51,219 nt of DNA, taken from Nitrospirota bacterium (GTDB taxonomy: Bacteria > Nitrospirota > JACRHL01). The DNA is taken from positions 1 through 51,219 of the forward strand of contig JACRHL010000013.1 in the NCBI GenBank assembly GCA_016212085.1, written 5' to 3'. The position numbers were made by a program, and so were the translations under genes. This document shows, piece by piece, positions 4,019-51,219 of the stretch (position 1 is the first letter of the stretch; every line of letters starts with the position of its first letter). The notes under the pieces were generated by a model that searched no databases, had not been told where the DNA came from, and worked only from the letters and a program-made list of their open reading frames with translations.

Positions 4019-4021
4019 CCC

Positions 4022-7470: not shown

Positions 7471-7601
7471 CCCCGCCGGGAGAGGGGCCGCGCGGGCTTG
7501 CGAGGGGGCCTGCGGCCATCGCCACCGGGGCGCCCAGGGCGCCACATTCCATAACCTGACGGGGATTCGTTGCCGGCCGGGGAGCCGTGCGCGGGTCACG
7601 G

Positions 7602-7637
7602 CAAAAAGAAAGGGGCTGCGATGGCTCGCAACCCCTT
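7602..7637 (-). terminator. Intrinsic terminator downstream of tRNA-Met
   Basis: On the minus strand a strong stem (AAGGGG + TGCGA paired with TCGCA + CCCCTT, arms 7610-7621 and 7626-7637) is followed immediately by TTTCTTTTT. It lies 5 bases downstream of the tRNA 3' end, where tRNA transcription should stop. Confidence 0.85.
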
Positions 7638-7642
7638 GGAAA

Positions 7643-7719
7643 TGGTAGCGGCGCAGGGATTCGAACCCCGGACACGCGGATTATGATTCCGCTGCTCTAA
7701 CCAGCTGAGCTACGCCGCC
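7643..7719 (-). tRNA. tRNA-Met (CAU), elongator type
   Basis: The minus strand folds into a complete cloverleaf of 77 bases with encoded CCA. The acceptor stem GGCGGCG pairs with CGCCGCU (G1-U72 wobble), the D-loop is AGCUGGUUAG, the anticodon stem GCGGA/UCCGC encloses the loop AUCAUAA with anticodon CAU, and the T-loop is UUCGAAU. The paired first position argues against initiator tRNA, which has an unpaired C1. A lysidine-modified tRNA-Ile with the same CAU anticodon cannot be wholly excluded. It has its own intrinsic terminator immediately downstream. Confidence 0.95.
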
Positions 7720-7779
7720 AAAAAGCCGATAGGCCGAAGAGGATACCGCTCCCGGATGTGCCGCGTCAATCGGCGTTTC

Positions 7780-8832
7780 TCAGGCGCCGGCGGCGACCAT
7801 GCGCAGCGGGTTTGGCGCCGGGGCGGGGGCCGGCTCGCAGTGGCCGTTGCCGGGGATCAGCCCCAGGTCGGCGATCATGCGGAAGTCGTCCGCCGGGCCG
7901 CGGCCGGGGGTGGTGAGGTAGTTGCCCACCATCACCGCGTTGGCGCCGGCGTGGAACGCCCACGACTGCATGTCGCGCAGGTTCACCTCGCGGCCGCCCG
8001 CCAGCATCAGGTTGGCCTCGGGGATCATCAGCCGGTACAGGGCGATGGTTTGCAGGCACTCCTGGGGGGACAGCGGCGTGGCGTGCTCCAGTGGGGTGCC
8101 GGGGATGGGGTTCAGGAAGTTCATGGGCAGCACGTCGGTGCCCACGTCGCGCAGGTGGATGGCCAGCTCCACGCGCTGCGCGGGGGTTTCGCCCATGCCG
8201 AAGATGGCGCCGGAGCAGATGCGGATGCCCGCCGCCTTGAGGCGGCCGATGGTGTCGAGCCGGTCCTGGAAGGTGTGGGTGGAGCAGATGTTCGGAAAGT
8301 GGCTGGGCGCCGTCTCCAGGTTGTGGTTGTAGGTGCGGATGCCCGCCTCCCGGAGGCGGGTGGCCATCTCCACCGTGGGCACGTGGCCCAGGGAGCCGTC
8401 CACATGGCCCTTGCCCTTCCGGGCCAGCTCGCGGATGCGCTCCAGCAGTGTGTCGAACTCCCGCCCCTCGCGTAGGCCCTTCCAGGCGGCGACGATGCCG
8501 AACGCCTCGGCCCCGGCGGCATAGGCCGCGTCCGCCGCCTGGCCGATGGCGGCGCCGTCCATGAGCGGGTAGACGGCCGCCTCGGTGCCGTGGTGGGCGG
8601 ACTGGGCGCAGAAGGCGCAATCCTCCGAGCAGGCGCCGGACTTGGCGTTGACGATGGCGCAGGTGTCCACCTTGGCGCCCTTGTAGTGCAGGCGCACCCG
8701 GTTGGCGGAGGCGATCAGGTCGAGCAGGTCCGGCGAACCGGCGGGGATGGCGGCGAGGCGGCAGCCCTCGTCGTGGGTGAGCCGCTCGCCGGCGATCACG
8801 CGCTCCTCGTATTCACGGATGACGTCGCGCAT
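7780..8832 (-). CDS. bioB: Biotin synthase
   Basis: Radical-SAM enzyme that inserts sulfur into dethiobiotin, the last step of biotin synthesis. The 350-residue protein shows the SAM-cluster motif C68-x3-C72-x2-C75 in SGACSEDCAFCAQS, followed by the family signatures YNHNLET, CSGAIFGMGE and MNFLNPIPGTP. These match BioB throughout. GAGGGA lies 5 bases before the ATG, and a good promoter (TTGATC-18-TAAAAT) stands about 45 bases upstream. No other bio genes are adjacent, so this is a lone biotin locus, which is common for bioB. The last 20 residues are an Ala/Pro-rich extension. Confidence 0.97.
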   Translation of the reverse strand: MRDVIREYEERVIAGERLTHDEGCRLAAIPAGSPDLLDLIASANRVRLHYKGAKVDTCAIVNAKSGACSEDCAFCAQSAHHGTEAAVYPLMDGAAIGQAADAAYAAGAEAFGIVAAWKGLREGREFDTLLERIRELARKGKGHVDGSLGHVPTVEMATRLREAGIRTYNHNLETAPSHFPNICSTHTFQDRLDTIGRLKAAGIRICSGAIFGMGETPAQRVELAIHLRDVGTDVLPMNFLNPIPGTPLEHATPLSPQECLQTIALYRLMIPEANLMLAGGREVNLRDMQSWAFHAGANAVMVGNYLTTPGRGPADDFRMIADLGLIPGNGHCEPAPAPAPNPLRMVAAGA

Positions 8833-8877
8833 GGGATCCCTCGTGGCGGTGGGTGGGAAGGTGTCGAAAGAAAAGCG

Positions 8878-8907
8878 ATTTTAGCAGCGGACCCGGGCAA
8901 CGATCAA
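8878..8907 (-). promoter_or_regulatory. Probable sigma-70 promoter for bioB
   Basis: On the minus strand TTGATC (8907-8902) and TAAAAT (8883-8878) are separated by 18 bases. The -10 hexamer matches five of six consensus bases. It lies 45 bases before the bioB start codon. Confidence 0.55.
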
Positions 8908-8957
8908 CCGGATTGGCGCCGGAGGTTGACGGTTGTCCGGGGCGCCGGCAGGGCCGT

Positions 8958-9839
8958 TCAGGCGCGGGTCAGCCGTTCCGCCCGCGCAGCGAAGTGGTTC
9001 GCGGCCTCCGGGTAGTGGGTGTTCAGCATGCGCGCGAACACGGGCCAGGCGGCCTTGCGCAGGTTCATGCGGCCCTTGCACACGAACGCCGCCCCGGCCC
9101 GCCGCGCCGCCGTTTCCAGCCGCTCGATCTGGCGCGGGTCGTCGTTGATGCCGGGGATGATCGGCATCAAAAACAGCCCCACGCGGATGCCGTGGCGGGC
9201 CAGGCAGGCAATGGCCTCCAGGCGCTTTTGCGGGGTGGCCGCCTTGGGCTCCAGGCGGCGGATCACGTCGGCGTCCAGGCTGATGAGGCTCATGTGCACC
9301 GTCAGGGTGGACTTGCGGGCCAGGCGCAGCAGCAGGTGCAGGTCGTCCAGGATGAGGGGCGACTTGGTGGTGATGGACAGGGTGAGCCCCGAGAAGGCGG
9401 CCAGCTTCTCCAGGATGCGGCGCGTCACCCGGTAGCGCCGCTCGGCGGGCTGATAGGGGTCGGTGGCGGTGCCGATGGCGATCTCGGCCCCGGCAAAATG
9501 GTCGTCGCGCAGGTCGTGGGCCACGCGCCGGTCGGCCCCCAGCTTCACGAACACCTGGCGCTCGAAGGCGAACGGGTCGTCCAGCCCCAGGTAGGCGTGG
9601 GTGTAGCGGGCGTAGCAGTAGGTGCAGCCGATCTCGCAGCCGCGGTACGGGTTCACCGTGTGCGAGAACGGGTAGCCCCCGCCCGCCGCCCCCGGCGAGC
9701 GGCCGATGATGGTTTTACAGGGGATCTCCCGATACACCACATCGGCCCCGTGGTCGCCCACCGGGGGGCCCAGCGGCATGGTGCCCGTGGCGGGGCGGGT
9801 GGGGAGGTCGGATAACAGGGGTAGCTGTGTCACAAACAT
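8958..9839 (-). CDS. Radical-SAM protein of the SplB-like / PA0069 family
   Basis: A 293-residue radical-SAM protein of unknown substrate. The SAM-cluster motif is C68-x3-C72-x2-C75 in NPYRGCEIGCTYCYAR, the hallmark of the COG1533 (SplB-related) group. Other family pieces are GTATDPYQPAE, ITTKSPLILDDL and GLFLMPIIPGINDD. Despite the distant relation to spore photoproduct lyase, members in non-sporulating bacteria have no established reaction. It stands alone, with a 125-base gap to bioB and divergent from ygfZ. The start ATG 9839 has no strong ribosome site. Confidence 0.85.
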   Translation of the reverse strand: MFVTQLPLLSDLPTRPATGTMPLGPPVGDHGADVVYREIPCKTIIGRSPGAAGGGYPFSHTVNPYRGCEIGCTYCYARYTHAYLGLDDPFAFERQVFVKLGADRRVAHDLRDDHFAGAEIAIGTATDPYQPAERRYRVTRRILEKLAAFSGLTLSITTKSPLILDDLHLLLRLARKSTLTVHMSLISLDADVIRRLEPKAATPQKRLEAIACLARHGIRVGLFLMPIIPGINDDPRQIERLETAARRAGAAFVCKGRMNLRKAAWPVFARMLNTHYPEAANHFAARAERLTRA

Positions 9840-9927
9840 ATGTTTGCAATTCCCGCGGTCGCCGTCAAGGGGGGGGCACGAAATAATCCGGTTGCCGATG
9901 CGGGTGGCGCAGGCGGGCGGGGGCCTT

Positions 9928-9974
9928 TACAATCAACGTGATCCATAGGATCCGAGCGCGCGCGCGCGTTTTTT
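9928..9974 (+). promoter_or_regulatory. Possible promoter and GC-hairpin/T-tract leader of ygfZ
   Basis: A good -10 hexamer TACAAT (9928-9933) precedes a 13-base alternating GC run (9956-9968) that can fold on itself and is followed directly by six T (9969-9974). That is the shape of a small intrinsic terminator, placed 22 bases before the ygfZ start. No convincing -35 is present, so the promoter is tentative. Confidence 0.35.
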
Positions 9975-9995
9975 ACCGGAAAAATCGACGACGGA

Positions 9996-11072
9996 ATGCG
10001 AACCATGACCCCCTCCCCCCTTGCCGACGTGCACCGCGCCCTGGGCGCCCGCTTCCTGGAACTGGACGGCCACGAGGTGGTGGCCGACTACGGCGACCCC
10101 CTCGCCGAGCAGCGCCGGGTGCGCGCCACGGGCGGGCTGATCGACCGCAGCTACCGGGGCACGTTGAGGGTGAGCGGCCCGGACCGGGTTGCCCTGCTGC
10201 AAGGCATGACCACCAACGACGTGCTGAAGCAGGCGGACGACAGCGCCATTCCCAACGCCATCTGCACCGGCCACGGCAAGGTGCAGAGCCTGTTCACCAC
10301 CATCCGCCGCGCCGACCACTTCCTGCTCGACATGGACCCGGCGCTGACCGGGTTCACCACGAAATTCCTGGAGAAATACACCATCATCCGCGACGCCAAG
10401 ACCGAGGACGTGAGCGACCGGTTCGCCCACTTCGGCCTGTACGGCCCCCACGCGCGGGCGGTGGCCGCCGCCGGCCTGAGCCTGGCGGAGGACAGGCTGC
10501 CGGACGCGGGCCGGGTGGCGGAGGCGGGCACCGCCCTGGTGATCGGCACCGCAGAGCTGGGGATGCCGGGGTTCGAGATCCTCCCTCCCCGCGCCGCCGC
10601 GCGGGAGACGTGGGACGCCCTGCTGGCCGCCGGCGTGGCGCGGGACGTGCTGCCGTTCGGCTTTACCGCCCTGGAGGGGCTGCGCATCGAGATGGGCCGC
10701 GCCCGCTACGGCGTGGAGGTGGACGACACCGTCATCCTGCTGGAGGCGGGCTTCCGCGACACGGCCAGCTTCGGCAAGGGGTGCTACATCGGCCAGGAGA
10801 CCCTGTCGCGCATCGTGTTCCGGGGCCACGTGAACCGGGCGCTCAAGGCCCTGCTTCTGGACGGTGACGCCCCGGCCCCGGTGTCGGGCACCGAGGTGAC
10901 GGCGGACGGCAAGGGGGTGGGGCAGGTGAAAAGCGCCGCCTTCTCCCCCAGCCTGGGCAAGGTGGTGGCCCTGGCCTACGTGAAGGCCAGCCACTGGGAC
11001 GCGGGCACGGCGGTGGACGTGGGCGGCGTGCCCGCCCGGGTGGCGGAGCCGCCGCTGATCCCGGCGGCGTAG
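9996..11072 (+). CDS. ygfZ: Folate-binding YgfZ/GcvT-like protein
   Basis: Tetrahydrofolate-binding protein of the aminomethyltransferase fold; YgfZ proteins assist iron-sulfur cluster maturation and repair, including for radical-SAM enzymes. The 358-residue protein carries the diagnostic motif GKGCYIGQE near residue 260, which separates YgfZ from true GcvT. The N-terminal GcvT-like region includes LIDRSYRGTLRVSGPDR and LLQGMTTNDV. Start choice is uncertain: ATG 9996 directly follows CGGA, so ATG 10005 has better ribosome-site spacing (9 bases). It is divergent from the radical-SAM gene; nearby bioB is also a cluster-dependent enzyme, so the grouping makes functional sense. Confidence 0.9.
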   Translation: MRTMTPSPLADVHRALGARFLELDGHEVVADYGDPLAEQRRVRATGGLIDRSYRGTLRVSGPDRVALLQGMTTNDVLKQADDSAIPNAICTGHGKVQSLFTTIRRADHFLLDMDPALTGFTTKFLEKYTIIRDAKTEDVSDRFAHFGLYGPHARAVAAAGLSLAEDRLPDAGRVAEAGTALVIGTAELGMPGFEILPPRAAARETWDALLAAGVARDVLPFGFTALEGLRIEMGRARYGVEVDDTVILLEAGFRDTASFGKGCYIGQETLSRIVFRGHVNRALKALLLDGDAPAPVSGTEVTADGKGVGQVKSAAFSPSLGKVVALAYVKASHWDAGTAVDVGGVPARVAEPPLIPAA

Positions 11073-11169
11073 CCCGTCAGTCCGATTCCCCCGGGGCCGT
11101 CGGCTGGAGGCCGGGTTGCGCCGATTTACGCATGGTGTTCCCGGGGATGCGGCACGGTGCGTGCGCCCG

Positions 11170-11940
11170 TCACGCGCCGCGGACGGGTCTTGGCTCGGTC
11201 AGTGTCAGCAGGATGTCGGCATACCAGGCGCAGTTCAGTCCAAGGGCTTCGTCCAGCTTCAGGTCACGGGTCCCGACGTCGAGCCGTGCCGAGTGGACAC
11301 CGAGCAGTATCCACGGCAGGTCGCCCTGGACCCGCTTTCCGCCGCTGGCGCGGAGCACGACGGGCGCCCCACTCGTGCCCCGGTGCGTGCGCGCATCGGT
11401 GAGGAAGTAACCCTCGCCCTGGAAACGCAGCCCGAACGACGACGCGATCACCGCGTGGCGCACCACGGGCATGTGGTGCAGCGTGTCGTGGAAGCCGAGC
11501 GGAAACCCCGGCACCAGTAGTGAACTTCCGATTTCGACCCGATCATCCGGGCGCAGCAGGTGTCGGTGCGTGAAGGTGCGGTAAACGGTCGTGTCCGGGA
11601 GCGCGGCGCGCTCGATCTCGATCACCGCCACGTCCACCTCTCCCGACGTATCGAGGCCCTGGTACCAGATGCTCTTTCCGTCGCGGTACAGCGGGATCGA
11701 GAATCCGGTGGACTTGGCCAGGTTGTTCCGGTCGATGTGCAGTTCGATCTCAATGCGGTCCGGGAAGTGCTTGCTCGGTTCGTCGATCACCACGTGCCGG
11801 CTCGTCACCAGGAACAGCCGCTCGTCGCGCTCGAAGAAAAAACCGCTCGCACCGGTCAGCGGCCGTTGTTGTTCGAAGGTGAGGACGCGGGCCGCAGTGA
11901 GCAGGAGGGATTCGACCATGGCCGATTCAGTGTATCCCAT
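11170..11940 (-). CDS. Trypsin-like serine protease domain protein
   Basis: A 256-residue single-domain protein with the chymotrypsin-fold triad in order: His in TSRHVV (about residue 49), Asp in DVAVIEI (about 104) and Ser in THRGTSGAP (about 191). There is no signal peptide and no PDZ domain, so it is not a DegP-type protease. It is probably cytoplasmic, resembling stand-alone trypsin-like modules often found in defence or stress contexts, but no partner gene is adjacent and I assign no role. Codon use is visibly less GC-rich at third positions than in flanking genes, suggesting acquisition. ATG 11919 (residue 8) is an alternative start; neither has a clear ribosome site. Confidence 0.8.
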   Translation of the reverse strand: MGYTESAMVESLLLTAARVLTFEQQRPLTGASGFFFERDERLFLVTSRHVVIDEPSKHFPDRIEIELHIDRNNLAKSTGFSIPLYRDGKSIWYQGLDTSGEVDVAVIEIERAALPDTTVYRTFTHRHLLRPDDRVEIGSSLLVPGFPLGFHDTLHHMPVVRHAVIASSFGLRFQGEGYFLTDARTHRGTSGAPVVLRASGGKRVQGDLPWILLGVHSARLDVGTRDLKLDEALGLNCAWYADILLTLTEPRPVRGA

Positions 11941-11998
11941 TGGCCGTGAGTCGGGTGGGCATCGGAGAAACCGAGAAACCGCGCCGTTCCGGGTTCGA

Positions 11999-12032
11999 GT
12001 TGAAAAAAAGGCCAGGGATGGACTTTTTCAAC
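11999..12032. repeat. Dispersed palindrome, copy A (GTTGAAAAA family)
   Basis: Arms GTTGAAAAA (11999-12007) and TTTTTCAAC (12024-12032) enclose a 16-base loop. The right arm with its flank, GGACTTTTTCAAC-like, recurs at 42934-42946. It may also act as a terminator for a transcript reading either way. Confidence 0.65.
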
Positions 12033-12038
12033 AGCCTG

Positions 12039-12100
12039 CCAATAACCGTCGCGAGCGGTTCGAGTGCAAGGCGGACGGCGCAGGTTCTTGGAGGTTCCCT
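12039..12100 (-). mobile_element. Truncated inverted fragment of the short mobile element
   Basis: The stretch AATAACCGTCGCGAGCG, then GAGTGCAAGGCGGACGG, matches the reverse complement of the right part of the full copies at 12109-12272 and 14374-14516. It lacks the outer GGGCACCT terminus. It looks like a decayed third copy lying head-to-head with the intact one. Confidence 0.6.
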
Positions 12101-12108
12101 CTACCCTT

Positions 12109-12272
12109 GGGCACCTCTATTAACCGGCTGCGCGCCCCGATTGCTGCGTTGGGCGGTGCTCGAACCCTCGCCTATCTCCCAGATATGTCTCGGGTTCTGC
12201 GCGGTGTAACGGTGCCGCTCCGCTCGGGGCGCCTTGCACTCAGGGCGCTCGCGACGGTTAATAGAGGTGCCC
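12109..12272 (+). mobile_element. MITE-like element, copy 1 (164 bp)
   Basis: The ends are perfect 18-base inverted repeats, GGGCACCTCTATTAACCG at 12109-12126 and its complement at 12255-12272. The element is flanked by a direct CCTT on both sides (12105-12108 and 12273-12276), consistent with a 4-base target duplication. The interior shares long identical blocks with copy 2, such as ATTGCTGCGTTGGGCG and GATATGTCTCGGGTTCT. There is no room for a transposase, so it would move only with help from elsewhere. It ends 12 bases beyond the moeA stop. Confidence 0.8.
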
Positions 12273-12284
12273 CCTTGTCGGGAA

Positions 12285-13457
12285 TCAGTCCCCGATGCCG
12301 ATCCCGATGCCGGGCGCGGGCAGCAGGTCCAGCACGGTCCCGGCGGGAAGCGGCGTGTCCCCCGCCGGCAGCAGCACCCAGGCCCCCTCGGCGGCGCGCT
12401 CCGGGTGGGCCAGCAGGGCCCCCTCCCGCAACGTGAGCCGCGCCGCCGCCAGCAGCGGCAGCGGGCCGCGTGGTTTTTCGTAATCCGTTCCCAGGCGGGC
12501 GCTCCCGCGCGGCGGCGGGCCCGTTTCCCCGGACAGGTGGCGCAGGATCGGCCACGCCAGCAGGGTGAACAGGGGCGCCAGCGCCCCCGGCGTGCCCGGC
12601 AGCGATACCAGCGTCCGCGCGCCGTTCACCGCCACCCGCGCAGTTTGGCCGGGGCGCAGCGCCAGGCCGCTCACCACCCAGCGGAACCCCGCCGCCTCCG
12701 CCCCCTGGCGGGTCAGGTCGAAGCGCCCCTTGGCGGTGCCGCCGGTGGTGATGGTGAGGGGGGCCGTGCAGCGCCCCAGGGCGGCGGCGATGGCCTCCAC
12801 CTGGTCCGGCGCCGGGGGCTGGCGGCGCGGCACCGCCCCGGCGCGCTTCACCAGGGCCGCCAGGTGGGCGCCGTTGCCGTCGTGATGGGTGCCCGTGGCG
12901 CCGGCGGAAAACTCGCTGCCGATGGCCAGCAGGTCCACCACCGGGAGGGTGAACACCCCCACCCGCCACACGCCGCAGTCCGCCAGCCGGCCCGCCTGGG
13001 CGGGGGTGACGGGGTGGCCGGCGCGGAGGATGTGCCGCCCCTTGCGCAGCCGCGCCCCGGTGGCCACGGGCGGCACCGGGGCGGTGCCGTCCAGGACCAC
13101 GGTGCCCGCCGCCTCCCGCGCCGCCTCGCGCGGCACCACCCCGGCGCAGTCCGACGGCAGCGGGCCGCCGGTCATGGCGAACAGCGCCTCGCCGGGGCCG
13201 GGGGGCGGGGGCGGCGGTCCGCCGGGAACGCTCTCCGCCACCACCCGCAGCGGCGTTCCCGACGGGGAGCCGGGGACATAGCCGTCCACCGCCGCCACGG
13301 GGGTGGACGGCAGGTCGCGGTCGGCCACGAGGTCGGCGGCGGCCACGCGGCCGGCGGCCTCGTCCAGGGGCACCTCGCAGCGGCCCGGAGTGGGCCATGG
13401 CAGGGAATCGGCAAGCGCCCGCTCCAGGTCGGCGGGGGCGACGGGGGGCGGCGTCAC
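12285..13457 (-). CDS. MoeA-like molybdopterin molybdotransferase paralog (diverged)
   Basis: MoeA inserts molybdate into molybdopterin to complete the cofactor. This 390-residue protein keeps the MoeA layout and some signatures (AVDGY in place of MDGYA; MTGGPLPSDC; a LPGTP loop for LPGNP). Several normally conserved positions differ: the GED of the RRxGED motif reads GRH, STGDEL reads AIGSEF, SSGGVS reads TTGGTA, and the KPGKP lysine pair reads RPGQT. It may therefore be a non-canonical paralog. The start is GTG 13457; it begins 5 bases after the stop of the SirB1-like gene, so the two are co-transcribed. The C-terminus ends in a short GIG repeat and lies next to the mobile element. Confidence 0.72.
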   Translation of the reverse strand: MTPPPVAPADLERALADSLPWPTPGRCEVPLDEAAGRVAAADLVADRDLPSTPVAAVDGYVPGSPSGTPLRVVAESVPGGPPPPPPGPGEALFAMTGGPLPSDCAGVVPREAAREAAGTVVLDGTAPVPPVATGARLRKGRHILRAGHPVTPAQAGRLADCGVWRVGVFTLPVVDLLAIGSEFSAGATGTHHDGNGAHLAALVKRAGAVPRRQPPAPDQVEAIAAALGRCTAPLTITTGGTAKGRFDLTRQGAEAAGFRWVVSGLALRPGQTARVAVNGARTLVSLPGTPGALAPLFTLLAWPILRHLSGETGPPPRGSARLGTDYEKPRGPLPLLAAARLTLREGALLAHPERAAEGAWVLLPAGDTPLPAGTVLDLLPAPGIGIGIGD

Positions 13458-42985: not shown

Positions 42986-44608
42986 TCAATCGATCGTGTC
43001 CTGACCGACGGCCGGAACCGGCCCGCCGCCCGCGCCGGGCAACGCCGCGAAATTCTCCGCCACCCCGCGCCCCTCGATGAGGCGCAGCGCGTAATCCCCC
43101 GGCGCGGTGCCGGGGGAGAGGCGCAGCTCCGCCACCGGCCCCCGGACGGGCAGGGGCAGGAACACATCGTTGGGGCCGGCGGCCAGCCGCGCCTGCACGG
43201 CGGGCTCGAATCCCGCCCCGCCGGGGCGCCGCCAGGCGACCGACAGCACCGTTTCCGCCGGGGCCGCCAGGGCCACCCGCAGCACCGGCCAGGCGTCGGC
43301 CGGGAGGTCCAGGCCCGGCAGCAGCAGGGCCGCGCCGGGACCACCCACCCGCAGGGCGCCATGTGGCGCCAGGGTCACCGGCCCGGAGATCCGGATGGGC
43401 GCATCGGCGCCGCCGGGGCTCAGCCAGCGGCGGCCCAGGGGGGCCTCGCGGTAGCGGCGGCGCAGGGTGGCCATGCGCAATTCCGGCACGAACGGCGCCG
43501 GCATGGTGAGCTTGCGCGCGGCCAGCTGGTCGATCACCACGGCGGGCCGCACGTCCGCCGCCAGCCAGTTCAGCAGGGGGAAGGAGTGCTCCAGCGGGTG
43601 CTGGGCGTTGGCCTGGGAGTCGTAGACGGCGGCCTGGAAGTGCCCGGCCAGCAGGGGGATCATGTCGTTGGCGAAGGAGTCGCGCAGCATCACCAGGCGC
43701 AAGGGCGGGGCGCCGCCGCAGCGGGTACGGAACGGGGCGCGGCGGGTGGCCCAGTCCGCCTCCAGGGGTATCTGGAAGTGCTCGGGCCGGGCGCAGGACG
43801 GGTCGGCGGGGGTCACGGTCACGCGGGTGTCCGCGTAGGCGGCGTTCAGGTTGAAGAGCTGGGCCAGGTCGCCTCCGGCTGCGGGCTCCCGCGCCACGGC
43901 GAACCGCTCCAGCGGCAGCGGCGCCAGTTCCGGGAACCAGCCGGACAGCCGCTCCATGACGGCTGCGTAGCCCACGTAGGCCCCCCGGCCGTTCCAGTGG
44001 GAATCGGTGCGCATGAACAGATCGCCATCGCCCTTGGCCGCAAGCAGCGCGGGGGTGAGGTCGACCACCGGCACGTCGGAGCGGGCGGCCAGGGCCGCCA
44101 TGAACTGCTCGCGCACGCTGGGGCCCACCGGCGCGAAGCGGGCGGGCAGGTGTTCCGGGTACACCTCCTGCTTGGCCGGGGTGACCACGAACAGGTAGCG
44201 CACGCCGCGCTCCGCCAGCCAGTCGCGCATGCCCTCCAGGTAGGCGCGCCACTGCTCCAGGTGGGCGTCCGGCAGGGTGATGCCGCCCCGGTAGGCGGTC
44301 ATGGCGTTGCCGCCGTAATAGAGCCAGCCATCGTCGCCGATGGCCACGCCGGGGCGGGTGCTCACCCCCAGGGCCAGCACCTTGACGCGGTTGTACGCCG
44401 CCACCAGCGGCGCGCGCAGGCCGAAGTGGTCGTTGAACCACGCCTCGAAGCCCTTGGGGAAGACGGCCAGGCCGTCGGACAGGGTGGGGAACGGCGCCAG
44501 CCGGCGCTTTTCCGCCTCCGACAGCTCCGCGCCGCCGGTCAACACCAGCGGCAGCACGGTCAGCGCCAGGAAGAAGGCCACCACCAGGCCCTGGAGGGTG
44601 CGTCGCAC
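42986..44608 (-). CDS. AlgJ/AlgX-like SGNH O-acetylation protein
   Basis: Periplasm-facing enzyme expected to move acetyl groups onto a surface polysaccharide with the MBOAT partner upstream. The 540-residue protein starts with a membrane/signal helix (LQGLVVAFFLALTVLPLVL) and holds the AlgX/AlgJ SGNH-like domain: DDGWLYYGGNAM, VTPAKQEVYPEHLP, the Asp-His pair in RTDSHWNGRGAY, and the serine in MLRDSFAND. The C-terminal 170 residues look like a beta-rich carbohydrate-binding part. GTG 44608 was chosen; it begins 5 bases after the algI-like stop. No alginate synthesis genes are present, so the polymer is unknown. Confidence 0.85.
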   Translation of the reverse strand: MRRTLQGLVVAFFLALTVLPLVLTGGAELSEAEKRRLAPFPTLSDGLAVFPKGFEAWFNDHFGLRAPLVAAYNRVKVLALGVSTRPGVAIGDDGWLYYGGNAMTAYRGGITLPDAHLEQWRAYLEGMRDWLAERGVRYLFVVTPAKQEVYPEHLPARFAPVGPSVREQFMAALAARSDVPVVDLTPALLAAKGDGDLFMRTDSHWNGRGAYVGYAAVMERLSGWFPELAPLPLERFAVAREPAAGGDLAQLFNLNAAYADTRVTVTPADPSCARPEHFQIPLEADWATRRAPFRTRCGGAPPLRLVMLRDSFANDMIPLLAGHFQAAVYDSQANAQHPLEHSFPLLNWLAADVRPAVVIDQLAARKLTMPAPFVPELRMATLRRRYREAPLGRRWLSPGGADAPIRISGPVTLAPHGALRVGGPGAALLLPGLDLPADAWPVLRVALAAPAETVLSVAWRRPGGAGFEPAVQARLAAGPNDVFLPLPVRGPVAELRLSPGTAPGDYALRLIEGRGVAENFAALPGAGGGPVPAVGQDTID

Positions 44609-44613
44609 GGCGT

Positions 44614-46056
44614 TCAAAAGCGGAAGTAGATGAACGGGTTGTAGGTGCCGGCGGCGAGCCCCATGGCCGAGGCGGCGAGCAGCAGGCACAGGGCCAGCGC
44701 CGCCGTGCCGGAGAAGGCCAGCTCCGCCGTCGTGCCCCAGGCGCCCCGGTCGCGGCGCCGGTCGCGCCAATCCGCCAGGCGCGGAATCAGGGGCAGGGAG
44801 CCCGCCGCGCCCACCGCCAGGCACAGCAGCACCTCGTTGTCCAGGTACAGGGCGGCGCTCCGCGCCGGGTCGCCGGCGGACAGGCCGGCCATGGCCGCCA
44901 GGTAGCCCAGGGCGTCGGGCAGGGTTTCGGCGCGGAAGAACACCCACGCCACCATCACCACCAGCAGGGCGTAGGCGTGGCGCAGGGGCGCCCAGGCGGC
45001 GTCCAGCAGGCGCCCCCAGGGGCCGCGCTCCAGGGCCAGGAACGCGCCGTGCAGCAGCCCCCAGATCACGAAGTTCCAGCTGGCCCCGTGCCACAGGCCG
45101 CACAGCAGGAACACGGTGAGCAGGTTGACGCCGGTGCGGACCCCCCCCAGCCGGTTGCCCCCCAGGGGGAGGTACAGATAGTCCCGGAACCAGCCGGAAA
45201 GGGACATGTGCCAGCGCCGCCAGAACTCCCGCACGGAGCGGGAGATGTACGGATAGTTGAAGTTCTCCGGGAAGTGGAAGCCGAACAGGCGGCCCAGGCC
45301 GATGGCCATGTCGGAATAGCCGGAGAAATCGAAATAGATTTGCAGGGTGTAGCAGGCGATTCCCAGCCACGCCAAGGGCGCGGACAGGTCGGCGGCGGGC
45401 AGGGCGAACACCTGGTCGGCCACCGCCCCCAGCGGGTTGGCGACCAGCATCTTCTTGCCCAGGCCGATGGTGAAGCGCTGGACGCCGTGGGCGAAGTCGT
45501 CGAACGTGACCAGCCGCTCCACGATCTGCCGGGCCACCTGATGGTAGCGCACGATGGGGCCGGCGATGAGCTGGGGGAACAGGGCGATGTAGAGCGCCAC
45601 CTGCAACGGACCGTGGCGCGCGGGGGCCTCGGCCCGGTACACGTCCACCAGGTAGCTCATGGCCTGGAAGGTGAAGAACGAGATGCCGACGGGCAGGTGC
45701 ACCGGGTCCAACTGCACCGGCGCCAGGCCCAGGGCGGGCAGCGCGGCGTTCAGGTTGTCCACCAGGAAGTTCGCGTACTTGAATGCCCCCAGCAGCGCCA
45801 GGTTGGCGGCCACGCCCAGGCCCAGGATCAGGCGCGCGGCCGCCCCGCCGCGCCGGCGGTCCAGCGCCACCCCCGCCAGGTGGTTGAGGGCGATGGAGAC
45901 GAGCATGACCGCCACGAACAGCCCCTCGCCCCAGGCGTAGAACAGCAGGCTGGCGGCGAGCAGCAGGGCGTTGCGCCCGCCCTTGGGCATGGCGACGTGT
46001 AGCGCCAGCACCAGGGGCAGGAACAAAAACAGGAAGACGGGCGAGCTGAATACCAT
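44614..46056 (-). CDS. MBOAT-family O-acyltransferase (AlgI-like)
   Basis: Membrane-bound acyltransferase that passes acetyl groups across the inner membrane. The 480-residue protein has about ten helices and the MBOAT signatures: SYLVDVYR, FPQLIAGPIVRYH, FDFSGYSDMAIGLGRLFGF, FWRRWHMSLSGWFRDYLYLP, and the active-site His in LCGLWHGASWNF. ATG 46056 begins MVFSSPVFLFLFLPLVLAL, the usual AlgI start. The frame is open upstream to 46347 without similarity. First gene of a two-gene operon with the AlgJ-like protein. Confidence 0.95.
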   Translation of the reverse strand: MVFSSPVFLFLFLPLVLALHVAMPKGGRNALLLAASLLFYAWGEGLFVAVMLVSIALNHLAGVALDRRRGGAAARLILGLGVAANLALLGAFKYANFLVDNLNAALPALGLAPVQLDPVHLPVGISFFTFQAMSYLVDVYRAEAPARHGPLQVALYIALFPQLIAGPIVRYHQVARQIVERLVTFDDFAHGVQRFTIGLGKKMLVANPLGAVADQVFALPAADLSAPLAWLGIACYTLQIYFDFSGYSDMAIGLGRLFGFHFPENFNYPYISRSVREFWRRWHMSLSGWFRDYLYLPLGGNRLGGVRTGVNLLTVFLLCGLWHGASWNFVIWGLLHGAFLALERGPWGRLLDAAWAPLRHAYALLVVMVAWVFFRAETLPDALGYLAAMAGLSAGDPARSAALYLDNEVLLCLAVGAAGSLPLIPRLADWRDRRRDRGAWGTTAELAFSGTAALALCLLLAASAMGLAAGTYNPFIYFRF

Positions 46057-46710
46057 GAAACGCCAGCGGGGCCGAGGGCGGAAAGGCGCCACCGGATCGG
46101 CGCCACCGGGCAAAGATAGCACATCCGCCGCGGCGGGCCGATCGCGGCGGCGCTCGCCCGGATTGGAGGACATCGCGTCGCGCCGCCGGCATGGGTGCCC
46201 ACCCACCCACGGGGAGGGGGGGGACGGGCCGGAACCAAGGCGGGCCAATGCGGACTCTTGGTGGGCCATCGGCCTGAAGCGGCCCGGATCGCGTTGTTTT
46301 AGGGCATGTTTTTTTCGATTTTTATATCGGGCATCGCCACGGCGCAAAAAAAGATGGTCAGGATGTTTGACATTGCTTTGTGAAATGAATTAGTAATCAA
46401 ACCGAGTTGCTGAGCATTATCGACGCCATGCCGGATGACGGCTTGTGCATCCCGGTGTGGGGGGACGCGCCGTGTGTGGCAACACGGATGGCGCGTGGGG
46501 GGATAAGCGTTGGCGCGTGGGTTTCCAGAACCCCGCTTCGGCGGTCACGGTGGTGGGTGGGGTCTGACGGCGCGCGGTTTCCTGCAAGCCGCGTGTTCGG
46601 ATGCGCCAGCGGGCATCGGCAACCCGAAACCGCTCGGTTCCATCATCGACAACTCGGCCGGCGCGGGTGCCCGTGGGCAGGGGCTTGGCGCCGCATGGCG
46701 TCCACCACGG
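46057..46710. other. Long divergent spacer with AT-rich promoter zone and structured leader
   Basis: A 654-base stretch without a convincing gene. 46290-46410 is strikingly AT-rich for this genome and should hold promoters for both the algI-like gene and the giant secreted protein. The following 300 bases contain strong hairpins, notably CCGTGT / ACACGG with outer CGCG arms (46466-46495), and are open in the frame of the next gene from 46507 but with weaker codon bias. Confidence 0.55.
46367..46396 (+). promoter_or_regulatory. Possible sigma-70 promoter for the giant secreted protein
   Basis: A perfect -35 TTGACA (46367-46372) is followed 18 bases later by TAGTAA (46391-46396), a moderate -10. 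It lies in the AT-rich patch and about 310 bases ahead of the chosen start codon, which implies a long leader. Confidence 0.4.
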
Positions 46711-49700
46711 GTGGCGCGGCCGTTTCCCGCATGGCTGGGCCGCTCGTTCGTGGCGTGGGGCGTTGTTGCCGCCTTGTGGCCCATGGCGGCGTTGGGCCAG
46801 GCGCCGGTTTCATTCAACACCGGCGTCCGGCCGATCCTCTCCAGCGCCGGCTGCACCGGCTGCCACGGCATATTCAACGGCACGGACTGGGCCGTGTACG
46901 GCGCCGTGCGGAGCCGCGTCAACCCGCCGCCGGGAACCCCGGCGAACAGCCTGCTGCTGCTCAAGGCCACGGCGAATCAATCCGTCGGCCATACCGGTGG
47001 CCGGCGCTTCACCACCCAAAGCGCCGAATACACCACCCTGCTGACCTGGGTTCAGCAGGGCGCCCTGTTCGACGGCCCCGCCGTCGCCCCCCGGGATGAC
47101 ACGGCACGGGCGGTCGCCGGGCAGACCATCGCCATCGCCGGCCTGCTGCTCAACGACGACGGCGGCTCCCTGGCCATCGCATCGGTGGACGCCGCGTCCG
47201 CCAACGGCGGCACCGTGGTCCTCGGGCCGGGTGCCGACACGGTCACCTACACGGCGCCCGCCGGGTATTACGGAACCGACACGTTCGCCTACGTGGCCGG
47301 CAACGGCACCGGCAGCGGGTCCGCCACCGTGCGCGTGACCGTGCTGCCCTCGGTGGTTCCCGACCGCACCATCCGGGTGGGCGTGGCGCCCCACGGGCGG
47401 GCCCTGCTGGACGTGTCCGCCACCAGCCACTTTTCCGTGAGTGACGACGGCCGCCACGTCACCTTCCTGTCCTTCGACGCCCTGGACACCGCCGACACCA
47501 ACGGCCTTCGGGACGTGTTCGCGCACGACCTGCACACGGGTGACACGGTCCGGGTGTCGCTCAACCAGGCCGGAGCGGCTCCCGGTTCCGGCGCCGGCAG
47601 CGCCGTGGTGTCCGGCGACGGGCGGTTCATCGCCTTCGACTCGTTCTCGCCGGACATCGTCGCGGCCGACGCCGCCGACGGCACGAACGACGTGTTCGTG
47701 TACGACGTGGCGGCGGGCACCACGTCCTCCGCCAGCCTTCCGCGCGGCCTTGCGAGCCCGTCCGGCCTGGCGATCCTGGAGGCCGACCGGGAAGACCCCT
47801 TCATCAGCGCGGACGGCCGCTTTGTCACCTTTGGTGCCTACCTGACCGGAGCTGCCTACCACAGCCAGGTGCTGCTCCGCGACCGCCAGGGCGGGGTCCT
47901 GGAGCTGATTTCCATCGGCCCCGGCAACACGGTGGGGGATGGCTCCGCCCACGGAACGGTCCGCGTCAGCGCGGACGGCCGGCTGGTGTTCTTTTCCAGC
48001 AGTGCCGGCAACCTGGTTTCCGGCGACACGAACCAGATGCTGGACGTGTTCGTGCGCAACCGCCAGACCGCCACCACCACCCGCCTGTCGCTGACGGCGG
48101 CGGGGGGCGAGGCGCCGTTGGAGAGCGTGCTGCTGGACGCCTCGGCGGACGGGCGCTACGTGCTGTTCCGCTCCCCCAACCCGGACATGGACACGGAGAC
48201 ATTGTTCGTGGCAGCCCCCGGCAACCACCTGTACCGGATCGACCGCACGCTGGCCATCACCACGCATATCGCCACCTGCGGTCCTCCAGGGGTCGTTACC
48301 GGTTGCGACGTGGCCTCCATCAGCAACGACGGCCGCTTTGTCGCGTTCGGCTCGGCGCGTTCCGACCTGGTCGCCGGGGACGCCAACAACGCCACCGACG
48401 TGTTCGTGTTCGACTGGCTGGACCGGAGCGTGTCGCGCGCCAGCGAGTCCCTCGGCGCCGCCGCCGGGAACGATCAAAGCGATTTTGCCCGCGTGTCCGG
48501 CAACGGCGCCATCGTCGTCTTCGCGTCGTATGCGGACGATCTGGTGGTGGGCGATGTCCCCGGCCCCTTCGGGATGGACATCTTCGCGCGGCCGACGGTG
48601 CGCTGCAACGACGGCAAGCAGGGCACGGCGGACAGCTACGACGTGGCAACGGCAAGCTGCGTGTACACGCCCATCCCCGGCTTCTGCGACGACGGCAACC
48701 CGAACACGCTGGATGCGTACGATTTGGCGACGGATAGCTGTAGCCACACATTGCAGGATGACGACAACGATGGCGTGAGCAACGCGGTCGACCTCTGTCC
48801 GAACACCCCGGCGGGTGCGGCGGTGAACGCCAATGGGTGCGCACAGACCCAACTCGACGACGATGCGGACGGGGTGAACAACGCCCTCGACCTCTGCCCC
48901 AACACCCCGTCGGGCGCGGCGGTGAATGCCGTCGGTTGCGCGCCGACCCAACTGGATGATGATGCGGACGGTGTGAACAACGCCATCGATCAGTGCCCGG
49001 CGACGCCCGTCGGTGCGGTGGTGAACGCGGTCGGTTGCGCGGCGACCCAACTGGACGATGATTCGGATGGTGTGAACAACGCCCTCGACCTCTGCCCGGC
49101 GACGCCCGTCGGTGCGGTGGTGAACGCGGTCGGTTGCGCGGCGACCCAACTCGACGACGATGCGGACGGGGTGAACAACGCCCTCGACCAGTGTCCCAAC
49201 ACCCCGGCAGGCGCGGTGGTGAATGCTGTCGGTTGCGCGCCGACCCAACTGGACGATGATTCGGATGGCGTGAGCAACGCCCTCGACCAGTGCCCGAACA
49301 CCCCGTCCGGTGCGGTGGTGAATGCCAATGGCTGCGCGGCGACCCAGTTGGATGATGATGGCGATGGGGTAAGCAACGCCATCGATCAGTGCCCGGCGAC
49401 GCCCGTCGGCGCGGTGGTGAACGCTGTCGGCTGCGCGGCGACGCAACTGGACGACGACAACGACGGTGTGAACAACGCCCTCGATCTCTGCCCCAACACC
49501 CCGGCCGGCGCGGTGGTGAATGCCGTCGGTTGTGCGGCGACACAACTGGACGACGACACGGATGGCGTGAACAACGCCCTCGAGCTCTGCCCGAACACCC
49601 CGGCCGGGGAGGCGGTCAATGCCGTCGGCTGCGCGGAGAGCCAGCTGGACGACGAAAAGGACGGGGTGAACAACGCCCTCGACCTCTGCCCCAACACCCC

Positions 49701-51219
49701 GGCGGGTGCGGCGGTGAATGCCGTCGGTTGCGCGGCGACGCAGTTGGACGACGATGCGGATGGCGTGAGCAACGCCCTCGACCTCTGCCCCAACACCCCG
49801 TCGGGCGCGGCGGTGAACGCTGTCGGCTGCTCGCCGACCCAACTGGATGATGACGGCGATGGGGTGAACAACGCCGTCGACCTCTGTCCAAACACCCCGG
49901 CGGGTGCGGCGGTGAATGCCAATGGCTGCGCGCAGACCCAACTCGACGACGATGCGGACGGGGTGAACAACGCCCTCGACCAGTGTCCCAACACCCCGGC
50001 AGGCGCGGTGGTGAATGCTGTCGGTTGCGCGGCGACCCAACTGGACGATGATTCGGATGGTGTGAACAACGCCCTCGACCACTGCCCGGCGACGCCCGTC
50101 GGTGCGGTGGTCAATGCCGTCGGCTGCTCGCCGACCCAACTGGATGATGACGGCGATGGGGTGAACAACGCCCTCGACCTCTGCCCGGCGACGCCCGTCG
50201 GTGCGGTGGTCAATGCCGTCGGCTGCGCACAGATCCAGCTGGACGACGATTCGGACGGCGTGAACAACGCCCTCGACCTCTGCCCGAACACCCCGGCGGG
50301 TGCGGCAGTGAATGCCAATGGCTGCGCGGCGACGCAGCTCGACGATGATGCGGACGGCGTGAACAACGCCCTCGATCAGTGCCCGGCGACGCCCGTCGGC
50401 GCGGTGGTGAACGCTGTCGGCTGCGCGCAGACCCAGTTGGACGACGACACGGATGGGGTGAACAACGCCCTCGATCTCTGCCCCAACACCCCGGCCGGCG
50501 TGGCGGTGAATGCCGTCGGCTGCGCGGCGACGCAACTGGACGACGACAACGACGGTGTGAACAACGCCATCGACCTCTGCCCGAACACCCCGGCCGGCGC
50601 GGTGGTGAATGCCGTCGGTTGTGCGGCGACACAACTGGACGACGACACGGATGGGGTGAACAACGCGGTCGATCTCTGCCCGAACACCCCGGCCGGCGCG
50701 GTGGTGAATGCCGTCGGCTGCGCGCAGACCCAGCTAGACGACGATGCGGACGGTGTGAGCAACGCGGTCGATCTCTGCCCCAACACCCCGGCGGGCGCGG
50801 TGGTGAACGCTGTCGGCTGTGCGGCGACCCAGCTCGACGACGATGCGGATGGCGTGAACAACGCCCTCGACCTCTGCCCGGCGACGCCCGTCGGCGCGGT
50901 GGTGAACGCTGTCGGCTGCGCGCAGACCCAGTTGGACGACGACACGGACGGGGTGAACAACGCCCTCGATCTCTGCCCGAACACCCCGGCCGGCGTGGCG
51001 GTGAATGCCGACGGCTGCTCAGCGACCCACCAGGATGAAGATGCGGACGGCGTGAACAACGCCCTCGACCTCTGCCCGCCGACGCCCGTCGGAGCGGGGG
51101 TCAATGCCGTCGGCTGCGCGGCGACGCAACTGGACGACGACAACGACGGTGTGAACAACGCCATCGACCTCTGCCCGAACACCCCGGCCGGCGCGGAGGT
51201 GAAAGCCAAAGGCTGCGAG
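46711..51219 (+). CDS. Giant secreted protein: c-type heme motif, Ig-like domain, beta-propeller, thrombospondin type 3 repeats (3' end outside window)
   Basis: At least 1,503 residues are visible and the frame is open at the right edge. Reading from GTG 46711, residues 1-31 form a signal peptide (MARPFPAWLGRSFVAWGV then VAALWPMAALGQA). Residues 32-120 form a small domain with one heme-binding motif C48-T-G-C51-H52. Residues about 124-206 are Ig/cadherin-like (LLLNDDG, GYYGTDTFAYV). Residues about 225-630 repeat the pattern SxDGRxVxF/DVFVYD about six times, as in WD40-like (TolB/PD40) propellers. From residue 682 run 25 calcium-binding TSP3 repeats. It should be exported and bind much calcium; the heme suggests redox activity. 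The exact start is uncertain (GTG 46711, or TTG 46510). It is divergent from the acetylation operon. Function unknown. Confidence 0.85.
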   Translation, partial: MARPFPAWLGRSFVAWGVVAALWPMAALGQAPVSFNTGVRPILSSAGCTGCHGIFNGTDWAVYGAVRSRVNPPPGTPANSLLLLKATANQSVGHTGGRRFTTQSAEYTTLLTWVQQGALFDGPAVAPRDDTARAVAGQTIAIAGLLLNDDGGSLAIASVDAASANGGTVVLGPGADTVTYTAPAGYYGTDTFAYVAGNGTGSGSATVRVTVLPSVVPDRTIRVGVAPHGRALLDVSATSHFSVSDDGRHVTFLSFDALDTADTNGLRDVFAHDLHTGDTVRVSLNQAGAAPGSGAGSAVVSGDGRFIAFDSFSPDIVAADAADGTNDVFVYDVAAGTTSSASLPRGLASPSGLAILEADREDPFISADGRFVTFGAYLTGAAYHSQVLLRDRQGGVLELISIGPGNTVGDGSAHGTVRVSADGRLVFFSSSAGNLVSGDTNQMLDVFVRNRQTATTTRLSLTAAGGEAPLESVLLDASADGRYVLFRSPNPDMDTETLFVAAPGNHLYRIDRTLAITTHIATCGPPGVVTGCDVASISNDGRFVAFGSARSDLVAGDANNATDVFVFDWLDRSVSRASESLGAAAGNDQSDFARVSGNGAIVVFASYADDLVVGDVPGPFGMDIFARPTVRCNDGKQGTADSYDVATASCVYTPIPGFCDDGNPNTLDAYDLATDSCSHTLQDDDNDGVSNAVDLCPNTPAGAAVNANGCAQTQLDDDADGVNNALDLCPNTPSGAAVNAVGCAPTQLDDDADGVNNAIDQCPATPVGAVVNAVGCAATQLDDDSDGVNNALDLCPATPVGAVVNAVGCAATQLDDDADGVNNALDQCPNTPAGAVVNAVGCAPTQLDDDSDGVSNALDQCPNTPSGAVVNANGCAATQLDDDGDGVSNAIDQCPATPVGAVVNAVGCAATQLDDDNDGVNNALDLCPNTPAGAVVNAVGCAATQLDDDTDGVNNALELCPNTPAGEAVNAVGCAESQLDDEKDGVNNALDLCPNTPAGAAVNAVGCAATQLDDDADGVSNALDLCPNTPSGAAVNAVGCSPTQLDDDGDGVNNAVDLCPNTPAGAAVNANGCAQTQLDDDADGVNNALDQCPNTPAGAVVNAVGCAATQLDDDSDGVNNALDHCPATPVGAVVNAVGCSPTQLDDDGDGVNNALDLCPATPVGAVVNAVGCAQIQLDDDSDGVNNALDLCPNTPAGAAVNANGCAATQLDDDADGVNNALDQCPATPVGAVVNAVGCAQTQLDDDTDGVNNALDLCPNTPAGVAVNAVGCAATQLDDDNDGVNNAIDLCPNTPAGAVVNAVGCAATQLDDDTDGVNNAVDLCPNTPAGAVVNAVGCAQTQLDDDADGVSNAVDLCPNTPAGAVVNAVGCAATQLDDDADGVNNALDLCPATPVGAVVNAVGCAQTQLDDDTDGVNNALDLCPNTPAGVAVNADGCSATHQDEDADGVNNALDLCPPTPVGAGVNAVGCAATQLDDDNDGVNNAIDLCPNTPAGAEVKAKGCE
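48754..51219 (+). repeat. TSP3 tandem array, 99-bp unit, 25 units visible
   Basis: The Asp codon preceding GVNNA recurs at exactly 99-base steps from 48769 to 51145. Each 33-residue unit reads QLDDDxDGVNNALDLCPNTP then AGAVVNAVGCAAT. The DxDxDG part is the calcium-binding loop and the two cysteines can form the disulfides seen in TSP3 folds. Two main flavours alternate irregularly (CPNTPAG and CPATPVG). The last unit changes to AEVKAKGCE, hinting that the array ends near the window edge. Confidence 0.95.

What the first reader, a model, noticed from the sequence alone, without database searches (positions are those of the whole stretch)
46711..51219. Heme-bearing giant surface protein with propeller and calcium-binding repeat stalk
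One polypeptide joins a signal peptide, a CxxCH heme motif, an Ig-like module, a WD40-like propeller and at least 25 TSP3 repeats. The TSP3 array should form a long calcium-stiffened stalk, placing a redox-capable domain and a propeller away from the cell. I do not know this architecture as a described system. It could serve surface redox chemistry, adhesion or matrix building.
Basis: partly seen in the sequence, partly recalled or inferred. Interest (0 to 1): 0.78.

Follow-up and report, generated by a model that had tools for sequence, protein, structure and literature searches.

The report
Giant heme stalk protein, split-Fn3 anchor
This is a real giant exported bacterial protein with a probable heme domain, a propeller and a calcium-repeat stalk; its missing end, found on another contig, shows an unusual anchor in which a lipoprotein signal sits inside the last protein domain, so the cell may cut that domain in two and hold the protein by the lipid-tagged half.

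Summary
The ORF at 46711-51219 encodes a signal peptide, a CxxCH domain, a Big_9 Ig domain, a six-motif PD40-like propeller and exactly 25 TSP3 repeats of 33 aa, then hits the contig end. CxxCH is conserved in the aligned homologues (two have a longer C-x4-CH spacing), so a mono-heme c-type domain is likely, although the fold match is weak. Only one other contig end in the genome (C21, left) carries the same 99-bp repeat, same strand, open frame. It adds 9 repeats, HYR domains, choice-of-anchor U and a C-terminal Fn3 domain interrupted by TM1, a basic loop, TM2 and a lipobox Cys. This tail recurs in exported proteins of Nitrospirota, Desulfuromonadales-type bacteria and Gammaproteobacteria: the Cys is invariant in 18 of 18, and the residue before it is S/A/G in 63 of 66. 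NCBIfam has a related model, "lipo-invert" (NF058595); its top Nitrospirota members carry the same cassette in an Ig-like region. I propose that signal peptidase II cuts inside the Fn3 domain and the lipidated C-terminal half holds the protein by strand complementation (not shown). The gene borders a Pel-type polysaccharide locus, so a matrix role is likelier than electron transfer.

The parts
46711..46803 (+). signal peptide (residues 1-31; start codon GTG, uncertain)
   Evidence: sequence inspection
46804..47076 (+). probable mono-heme c-type cytochrome domain (residues 32-122)
   Evidence: homologues with conserved CxxCH; helical AF2 model, weak fold match
46852..46866 (+). CTGCH heme-binding motif
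46990..46992 (+). His94, candidate distal heme ligand (HTGG; aligns near HGGG of L177/L179)
   Evidence: inference
47080..47340 (+). Big_9 bacterial Ig domain (residues 124-210)
   Evidence: PF17963 8.5e-10
47368..48597 (+). PD40-like beta-propeller, six blade motifs
   Evidence: PF07676 1.6e-4; motifs; homologues
48601..48750 (+). CDDG-type module; the same module follows the array on C21
48751..51219 (+). TSP3 array, 25 repeats of 33 aa, cut by the contig end; continues on C21:3-1184 (9 more repeats), then HYR x2, choice-of-anchor U and split-Fn3 tail to C21:2957 (L011)

Best explanation
A giant (at least about 2490 aa) exported, surface-anchored matrix or adhesion protein. The head (one probable c-type heme domain, Ig domain, propeller) is carried on a stalk of at least 34 TSP3 repeats. 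The base (HYR x2, choice-of-anchor U, split Fn3) is held by an internal lipoprotein signal. Proposed mechanism: (1) Sec exports the chain [inferred from the signal peptide]. (2) TM1 inside the last Fn3 domain stops transfer, the basic loop stays in the cytoplasm, and TM2 re-inserts as a type II signal sequence [inferred from the charge pattern]. (3) Lgt/LspA lipidate the lipobox Cys and cut before it, freeing a C-terminal fragment of about 63 aa that carries Fn3 strands E, F and G [inferred from lipobox conservation]. (4) The lipidated fragment stays bound to strands A-C' of the upstream part by beta-strand complementation; TM1 is released by an unknown protease or later [speculative]. (5) The assembly is moved to the outer membrane or surface, perhaps by Lol and/or the type II system [speculative; GspD and LspA genes are present]. 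(6) It serves as a stalked adhesin or scaffold for the Pel-type polysaccharide encoded next door [inferred from context]. The role of the heme is open.
For: C9-right and C21-left are the only contig ends with this 99-bp repeat, both on + and in an open frame, with the same CDDG module bordering both sides of the array. Choice-of-anchor U on C21: 78.9 bits against a cut-off of 32. The tail is matched in 14 of 148 genomes searched, own included, some hits partial, and in many named MAGs. In 18 aligned tails the lipobox Cys is invariant. In 66 distinct tails, position -1 is S/A/G in 63, +2 is D in 1, the loop has 3.7 basic and 0.15 acidic residues on average, and both stretches are strongly hydrophobic. 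AF2 gives most of both halves of the Fn3 domain pLDDT above 90 with the insert low; Foldseek's best matches are Fn3 domains aligned across the gap. Alignment with intact Fn3 domains puts the insert in the loop before strand E. The same cassette sits in an Ig-like region in members above the NF058595 cut-off. 27 of 30 tail proteins with a complete 5' end have a signal-peptide-like N-terminus, and sampled ones carry extracellular domains such as FG-GAP, PKD, PD40, SBBP, subtilase. LspA, GspD and cytochrome c assembly genes present. Pel locus adjacent.
Against: No cleavage, lipidation or complementation was shown. The C9-C21 join rests on uniqueness, not on a read across the gap. This protein's own tail scores 12-15 bits against the NF058595 cut-off of 37. 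If LspA cuts at TM2, TM1 would still tie the upstream part to the inner membrane unless another protease acts; no such enzyme was identified. No homologue of the whole head was found in 148 relatives, so its function cannot be tested by conservation. The heme fold match is weak.
Confidence: 0.5

Rival explanations
1. The hydrophobic cassette is a plain two-helix hairpin that holds the intact protein in the inner membrane; both Fn3 halves meet in the periplasm and nothing is cut.
For: TM1-basic loop-TM2 is a good hairpin, and the two Fn3 halves can meet without cleavage.
Against: Does not explain an invariant Cys preceded by S/A/G at the end of TM2. An inner-membrane place is odd for a stalked protein of over 2,000 aa with extracellular-type domains.
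Confidence: 0.22
2. TM1 plus its basic cluster is a CTERM-type sorting signal cut by a dedicated intramembrane protease (as with rhombosortase or myxosortase); the lipobox part is a by-product or is degraded.
For: TM1 is often preceded by AGxGxG and followed by RRK, as in CTERM signals; weak CTERM-model hits in single members (JDVT-CTERM 0.0034, GPS-CTERM 0.023).
Against: The strands after the Cys are as strongly conserved as those before it, so the C-terminal fragment is under selection. No partner protease was identified here.
Confidence: 0.15
3. C9 and C21 are two different genes with similar repeats; the C9 protein ends otherwise (for example OmpA-like) in unassembled sequence.
For: No read or relative spans the gap.
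Against: Only these two contig ends carry the repeat, facing each other in frame, in a 99% complete assembly; shared CDDG module on both sides.
Confidence: 0.06
4. One reading: the stalk places a redox-active heme outside the cell for electron transfer.
For: Conserved CxxCH and an HzsA-type heme domain relation; heme assembly genes present.
Against: A single heme at the tip of a very long non-heme stalk has no visible electron path; neighbours are polysaccharide genes, not cytochromes.
Confidence: 0.12

Closest known systems
NCBIfam NF058595 'lipo-invert putative C-terminal anchoring domain' (invert_tail)
   Same: Same cassette: TM1, basic loop, TM2, lipobox Cys, Gly/Ser/Pro linker, then the last beta-strands; C-terminal; on exported proteins.
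   Different: The clearest members above the cut-off carry the cassette in an Ig-like region. The Fn3-split form scores below the cut-off (12-15 bits for this protein, about 33 by my estimate for the best of 18 tails). No paper with the term was found in the held library.
MYXO-CTERM / myxosortase (PMC11980579)
   Same: C-terminal signal with an invariant Cys predicted to be lipidated; exported surface proteins; type II secretion used.
   Different: The paper states that MYXO-CTERM lacks a defined lipobox and has inverted topology. Here a lipobox-like site ends a second TM and domain strands follow it.
GlyGly-CTERM / rhombosortase (PMC13393428)
   Same: Short C-terminal motif giving membrane association of type II secretion cargo.
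   Different: Needs a dedicated rhomboid protease; from general knowledge, no lipobox and no domain strands after the signal.
TSP3-repeat surface proteins (PA1041, TraB, MtsC models)
   Same: DxDxDG...CPxTPxG...GC repeats; NCBIfam scores the repeat region with these models.
   Different: Longer array, no OmpA-type domain found, different head and anchor. The PA1041 score above its cut-off is repeat cross-matching in 25 stretches, not orthology.
HzsA-related multi-heme proteins (HZS_alpha, PF18582)
   Same: A CxxCH domain of these proteins aligns with residues 32-122 (33-38% identity).
   Different: No HZS_alpha domain here and only one heme motif; His instead of the Met seen in most of the aligned domains.

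Membership tests
NF058595 lipo-invert | Score at or above the curated cut-off of 37 bits | tested here: not met
   12.4-15.1 bits for this protein; best E of the 18 Fn3-type tails 6e-8
NF058595 lipo-invert | TM1, basic loop, TM2, lipobox Cys, then C-terminal beta-strands (features read from members, not from a published definition) | tested here: met
NF058595 lipo-invert | Lipid modification and cleavage at the Cys | not testable with these tools
   needs biochemistry
Fibronectin type III domain (the interrupted C-terminal domain) | Fn3 sequence and fold on both sides of the insert | tested here: met
   fn3 2.7e-5 on the C-terminal part (24.7 bits, just under the cut-off of 25); AF2 and Foldseek; alignment with intact Fn3
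c-type cytochrome | Heme-binding motif conserved among homologues | tested here: met
   C, C and H invariant in alignment A4, with C-x4-CH spacing in two of ten
c-type cytochrome | Cytochrome c fold | tested here: inconclusive
   helical model, pLDDT 68; best Foldseek hits are cytochromes c but at E 0.8 and above; no Pfam match
c-type cytochrome | Covalently bound heme | not testable with these tools
   cytochrome c assembly proteins present in the genome
TSP3 repeat protein | PF02412 repeats above cut-off | tested here: met
   25 + 9 copies
OmpA-anchored TSP3 protein | C-terminal OmpA-like domain | tested here: not met
   no OmpA match in the C21 half
Choice-of-anchor U protein | NF041766 above cut-off | tested here: met
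   78.9 bits against 32
Pel polysaccharide locus (context) | PelF and PelG present | tested here: met
   PelF 397 bits against 100; PelG 391 against 29

The most novel reading that the evidence does not exclude
A self-splitting domain anchor: signal peptidase II cuts inside a folded Fn3 (or Ig-like) domain, and the lipidated C-terminal fragment holds the large exported protein non-covalently by beta-strand complementation. This would give C-terminal lipid anchoring with the ordinary lipoprotein enzymes.
Probability: 0.42. Interest if true: 0.85.

Novelty: new variant of a known kind. Interest (0 to 1): 0.6.

Why it matters
If the tail works as proposed, bacteria have a way to lipid-anchor very large proteins by the C-terminus with the standard Lgt/LspA enzymes, by hiding a lipoprotein signal inside a beta-sandwich domain. 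Programs that look for lipoprotein signals only at N-termini would miss it. It would add anchored proteins in Nitrospirota, Desulfuromonadales-type bacteria and Gammaproteobacteria (proteases, propellers, FG-GAP proteins and this heme-headed stalk), and it can be tested directly in E. coli laboratory strains. The heme-propeller-TSP3 head beside a Pel locus is a separate, weaker point: a candidate matrix scaffold.

Tried and rejected
Pfam and PDB sequence searches for the N-terminal domain gave nothing useful, so homologues were taken from phylum genomes. No tail relative in viral contigs; neither a canonical tail nor the head in plasmids. Alignment A2 was too diverged for a genome-contig scan; a narrower alignment A3 worked. 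Apparent two-gene versions of the tail (L055, L066, L117) are frameshifts between TM1 and TM2, so I do not count them as support for the split model. C13 and the right end of C1 were considered as missing pieces between C9 and C21 and rejected: they carry a different repeat of about 30 aa from another giant protein. Most Bacteroidota and Thermotogota hits are plain Fn3 domains without the cassette. NCBIfam matches to PA1041, TraB and MtsC on the repeats were rejected as repeat cross-matches. In one search L114 was misparsed (one search gives its lipobox as VLVSC). Literature searches for 'lipo-invert' and 'internal lipobox' gave no paper.

Full report
Observation. The window is the whole of contig C9 (51,219 b) of a 2.7 Mb, 99% complete genome. 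The frame from 46711 to the contig end is open and encodes the listed parts: a signal peptide by inspection, CTGCH at residues 48-52, Big_9 at 124-210, a PD40-like propeller with six SxDGRxVxFxS-type motifs, a CDDG module and 25 TSP3 repeats with an exact 33-residue period. The repeats are far beyond chance (PF02412 4e-72).

The missing end. The repeat occurs elsewhere only at the left end of contig C21, on the same strand and in an open frame of 984 aa; other TSP3 proteins of this genome that I read (C23, C1/C13) use different repeats. The same CDDG module borders the array on both contigs. I therefore read C9 and C21 as one gene broken by the assembler inside the array, with a gap of unknown length. 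C21 adds nine repeats, two HYR domains (PF02494 2.6e-10), choice-of-anchor U (78.9 bits, cut-off 32) and a C-terminal Fn3 domain. The protein is at least about 2,490 aa with at least 34 TSP3 repeats. No OmpA domain was found.

The tail. The last Fn3 domain is interrupted by a hydrophobic stretch, a basic loop (RHRRH), a second hydrophobic stretch ending AASGC, and a Gly-rich linker, after which Fn3 resumes (QSVFGLRPDTTYYWKV...). A 169-aa query matches in 14 of 148 genomes searched, this one included, a few of the hits partial or plain Fn3. In an alignment of 18 tails chosen without regard to the Cys, that Cys is invariant, as are W26, Y136, W138 and other Fn3 core positions. A genome-collection scan found 165 relatives, of which the best 80 were kept: the tail occurs mostly in Nitrospirota, also in Desulfuromonadales/deltaproteobacterial and gammaproteobacterial MAGs and a few others, while most Bacteroidota and Thermotogota hits are plain Fn3 domains. 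One contig found there is identical over the query to a tail of genome G139, which is in the same phylum as this genome, so the host is probably Nitrospirota (inference). In 66 distinct tails the residue before the Cys is S, A or G in 63, +2 is G in 50 and D in one, and the loop averages 3.7 basic against 0.15 acidic residues (that set required a Cys after a hydrophobic stretch, but not its neighbours). AlphaFold2 gives most of both Fn3 halves pLDDT above 90 with the insert low, and Foldseek matches Fn3 domains across the gap. Aligned with intact Fn3 domains, the insert falls in the loop before the strand that precedes TTYYWKV, so strands E, F and G lie after the Cys (strand letters are my reading of the model).

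Relation to lipo-invert. NCBIfam NF058595, 'lipo-invert putative C-terminal anchoring domain', matches all 18 tails, but weakly: the best E-value is 6e-8 and this protein scores 15 bits against a cut-off of 37. In the phylum sample five genomes have a match above the cut-off; the two I read in full from family f9 (L152, L153) have the same cassette in an Ig-like region before the last two strands, while one borderline member (L155) is Fn3-type. The same cassette in two kinds of beta-sandwich suggests that the host domain is there to be split. No paper with this name was found in the held library. MYXO-CTERM, the nearest published system, lacks a defined lipobox and has inverted topology (PMC11980579).

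Who carries it. In a sample of nine tail proteins the domains are FG-GAP, ASPIC, PKD, PD40, SBBP, subtilase and choice-of-anchor D or U; two have no Pfam match. 27 of 30 with a complete 5' end have a signal-peptide-like N-terminus by a simple rule. L082, from a gammaproteobacterium, has propeller, choice-of-anchor U and the tail, the closest architecture to this one, without stalk or heme. Two further tail proteins are a 3,271-aa protein and a 1,440-aa protein whose N-terminal part looks like a metalloprotease (by inspection).

The heme domain. Residues 32-122 have homologues in five HzsA-like multi-heme proteins (one checked by Pfam: HZS_alpha 1.5e-18) and in other CxxCH proteins of the phylum. 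Both Cys and the His, and a Pro, a Lys, a Tyr and a Trp among others, are invariant in ten sequences; two of these have C-x4-CH spacing. The second heme ligand could be His94, by comparison with the HGGG of L177 and L179; most of the other homologues have Met there. The model is helical as expected but of moderate confidence, and the fold match is weak. Cytochrome c assembly genes are present. A heme c domain is likely but not shown.

Function. Downstream on C21 are a GH114 glycosidase with a lipoprotein-like N-terminus, an Agd3-type deacetylase, PelG, PelF and PelE/PelD-like genes; upstream on C9 are MBOAT and AlgX-like O-acetylation genes. A stalked matrix or adhesion protein for this polysaccharide is the best reading; electron transfer is possible but has no other support. 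No relative of the whole head was found in 148 genomes.

What is shown and what is not. Shown: the ORF, the domains, the repeat count, the conserved cassette and lipobox, its position inside Fn3, its taxonomic spread and the Pel context. Inferred: one gene across the gap, heme binding, topology, LspA cleavage. Speculative: strand complementation after cleavage, fate of TM1, route to the surface.

Noticed in passing
L011 (C21) 3044-12497: Pel-type polysaccharide locus next to the giant gene: GH114 with lipoprotein-like N-terminus, Agd3-type deacetylase, PelG, PelF, PelE-like TPR protein, PelD-like GAF protein.
   Followed up: partly
window 42986-46347 (-): MBOAT O-acyltransferase and AlgX-like SGNH acetyltransferase pair, divergent from the giant gene; probably polysaccharide O-acetylation.
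   Followed up: partly
G000:C23:66500-84000 (L187, L188): Two more giant TSP3 proteins close together (1,965 and 2,464 aa open frames) that share an Asp/Lys-rich C-terminal end (KGDRGDEDKGS...DFDG.RDEDxx) and do not end in the split-Fn3 tail.
   Followed up: partly
G000:C13 (whole, 5,454 b) and C1 right end (L186, L190): A further giant repeat protein apparently broken across contigs, with about 30-aa CPADTDNDADGDGICSG-type repeats and repeated Ig-like domains; C13 is one open frame from end to end.
   Followed up: partly
G000:C16:154863-156050 (L185): Propeller paralogue (39% identity) that looks like an ordinary N-terminal lipoprotein (LTLAACGGG), so a related propeller seems to be anchored by the usual route.
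   Followed up: no
L055, L066, L117: Tail genes frameshifted exactly between TM1 and TM2; could be a sequencing error, a pseudogene or a real split gene.
   Followed up: partly
G124:C94 and C97: Long frames (up to 2,035 aa) with several Big_9-like matches in a related genome.
   Followed up: no
window 46510-46710: The open frame extends upstream of the GTG at 46711 and no clear ribosome-binding site was seen there; the true start is uncertain.
   Followed up: no
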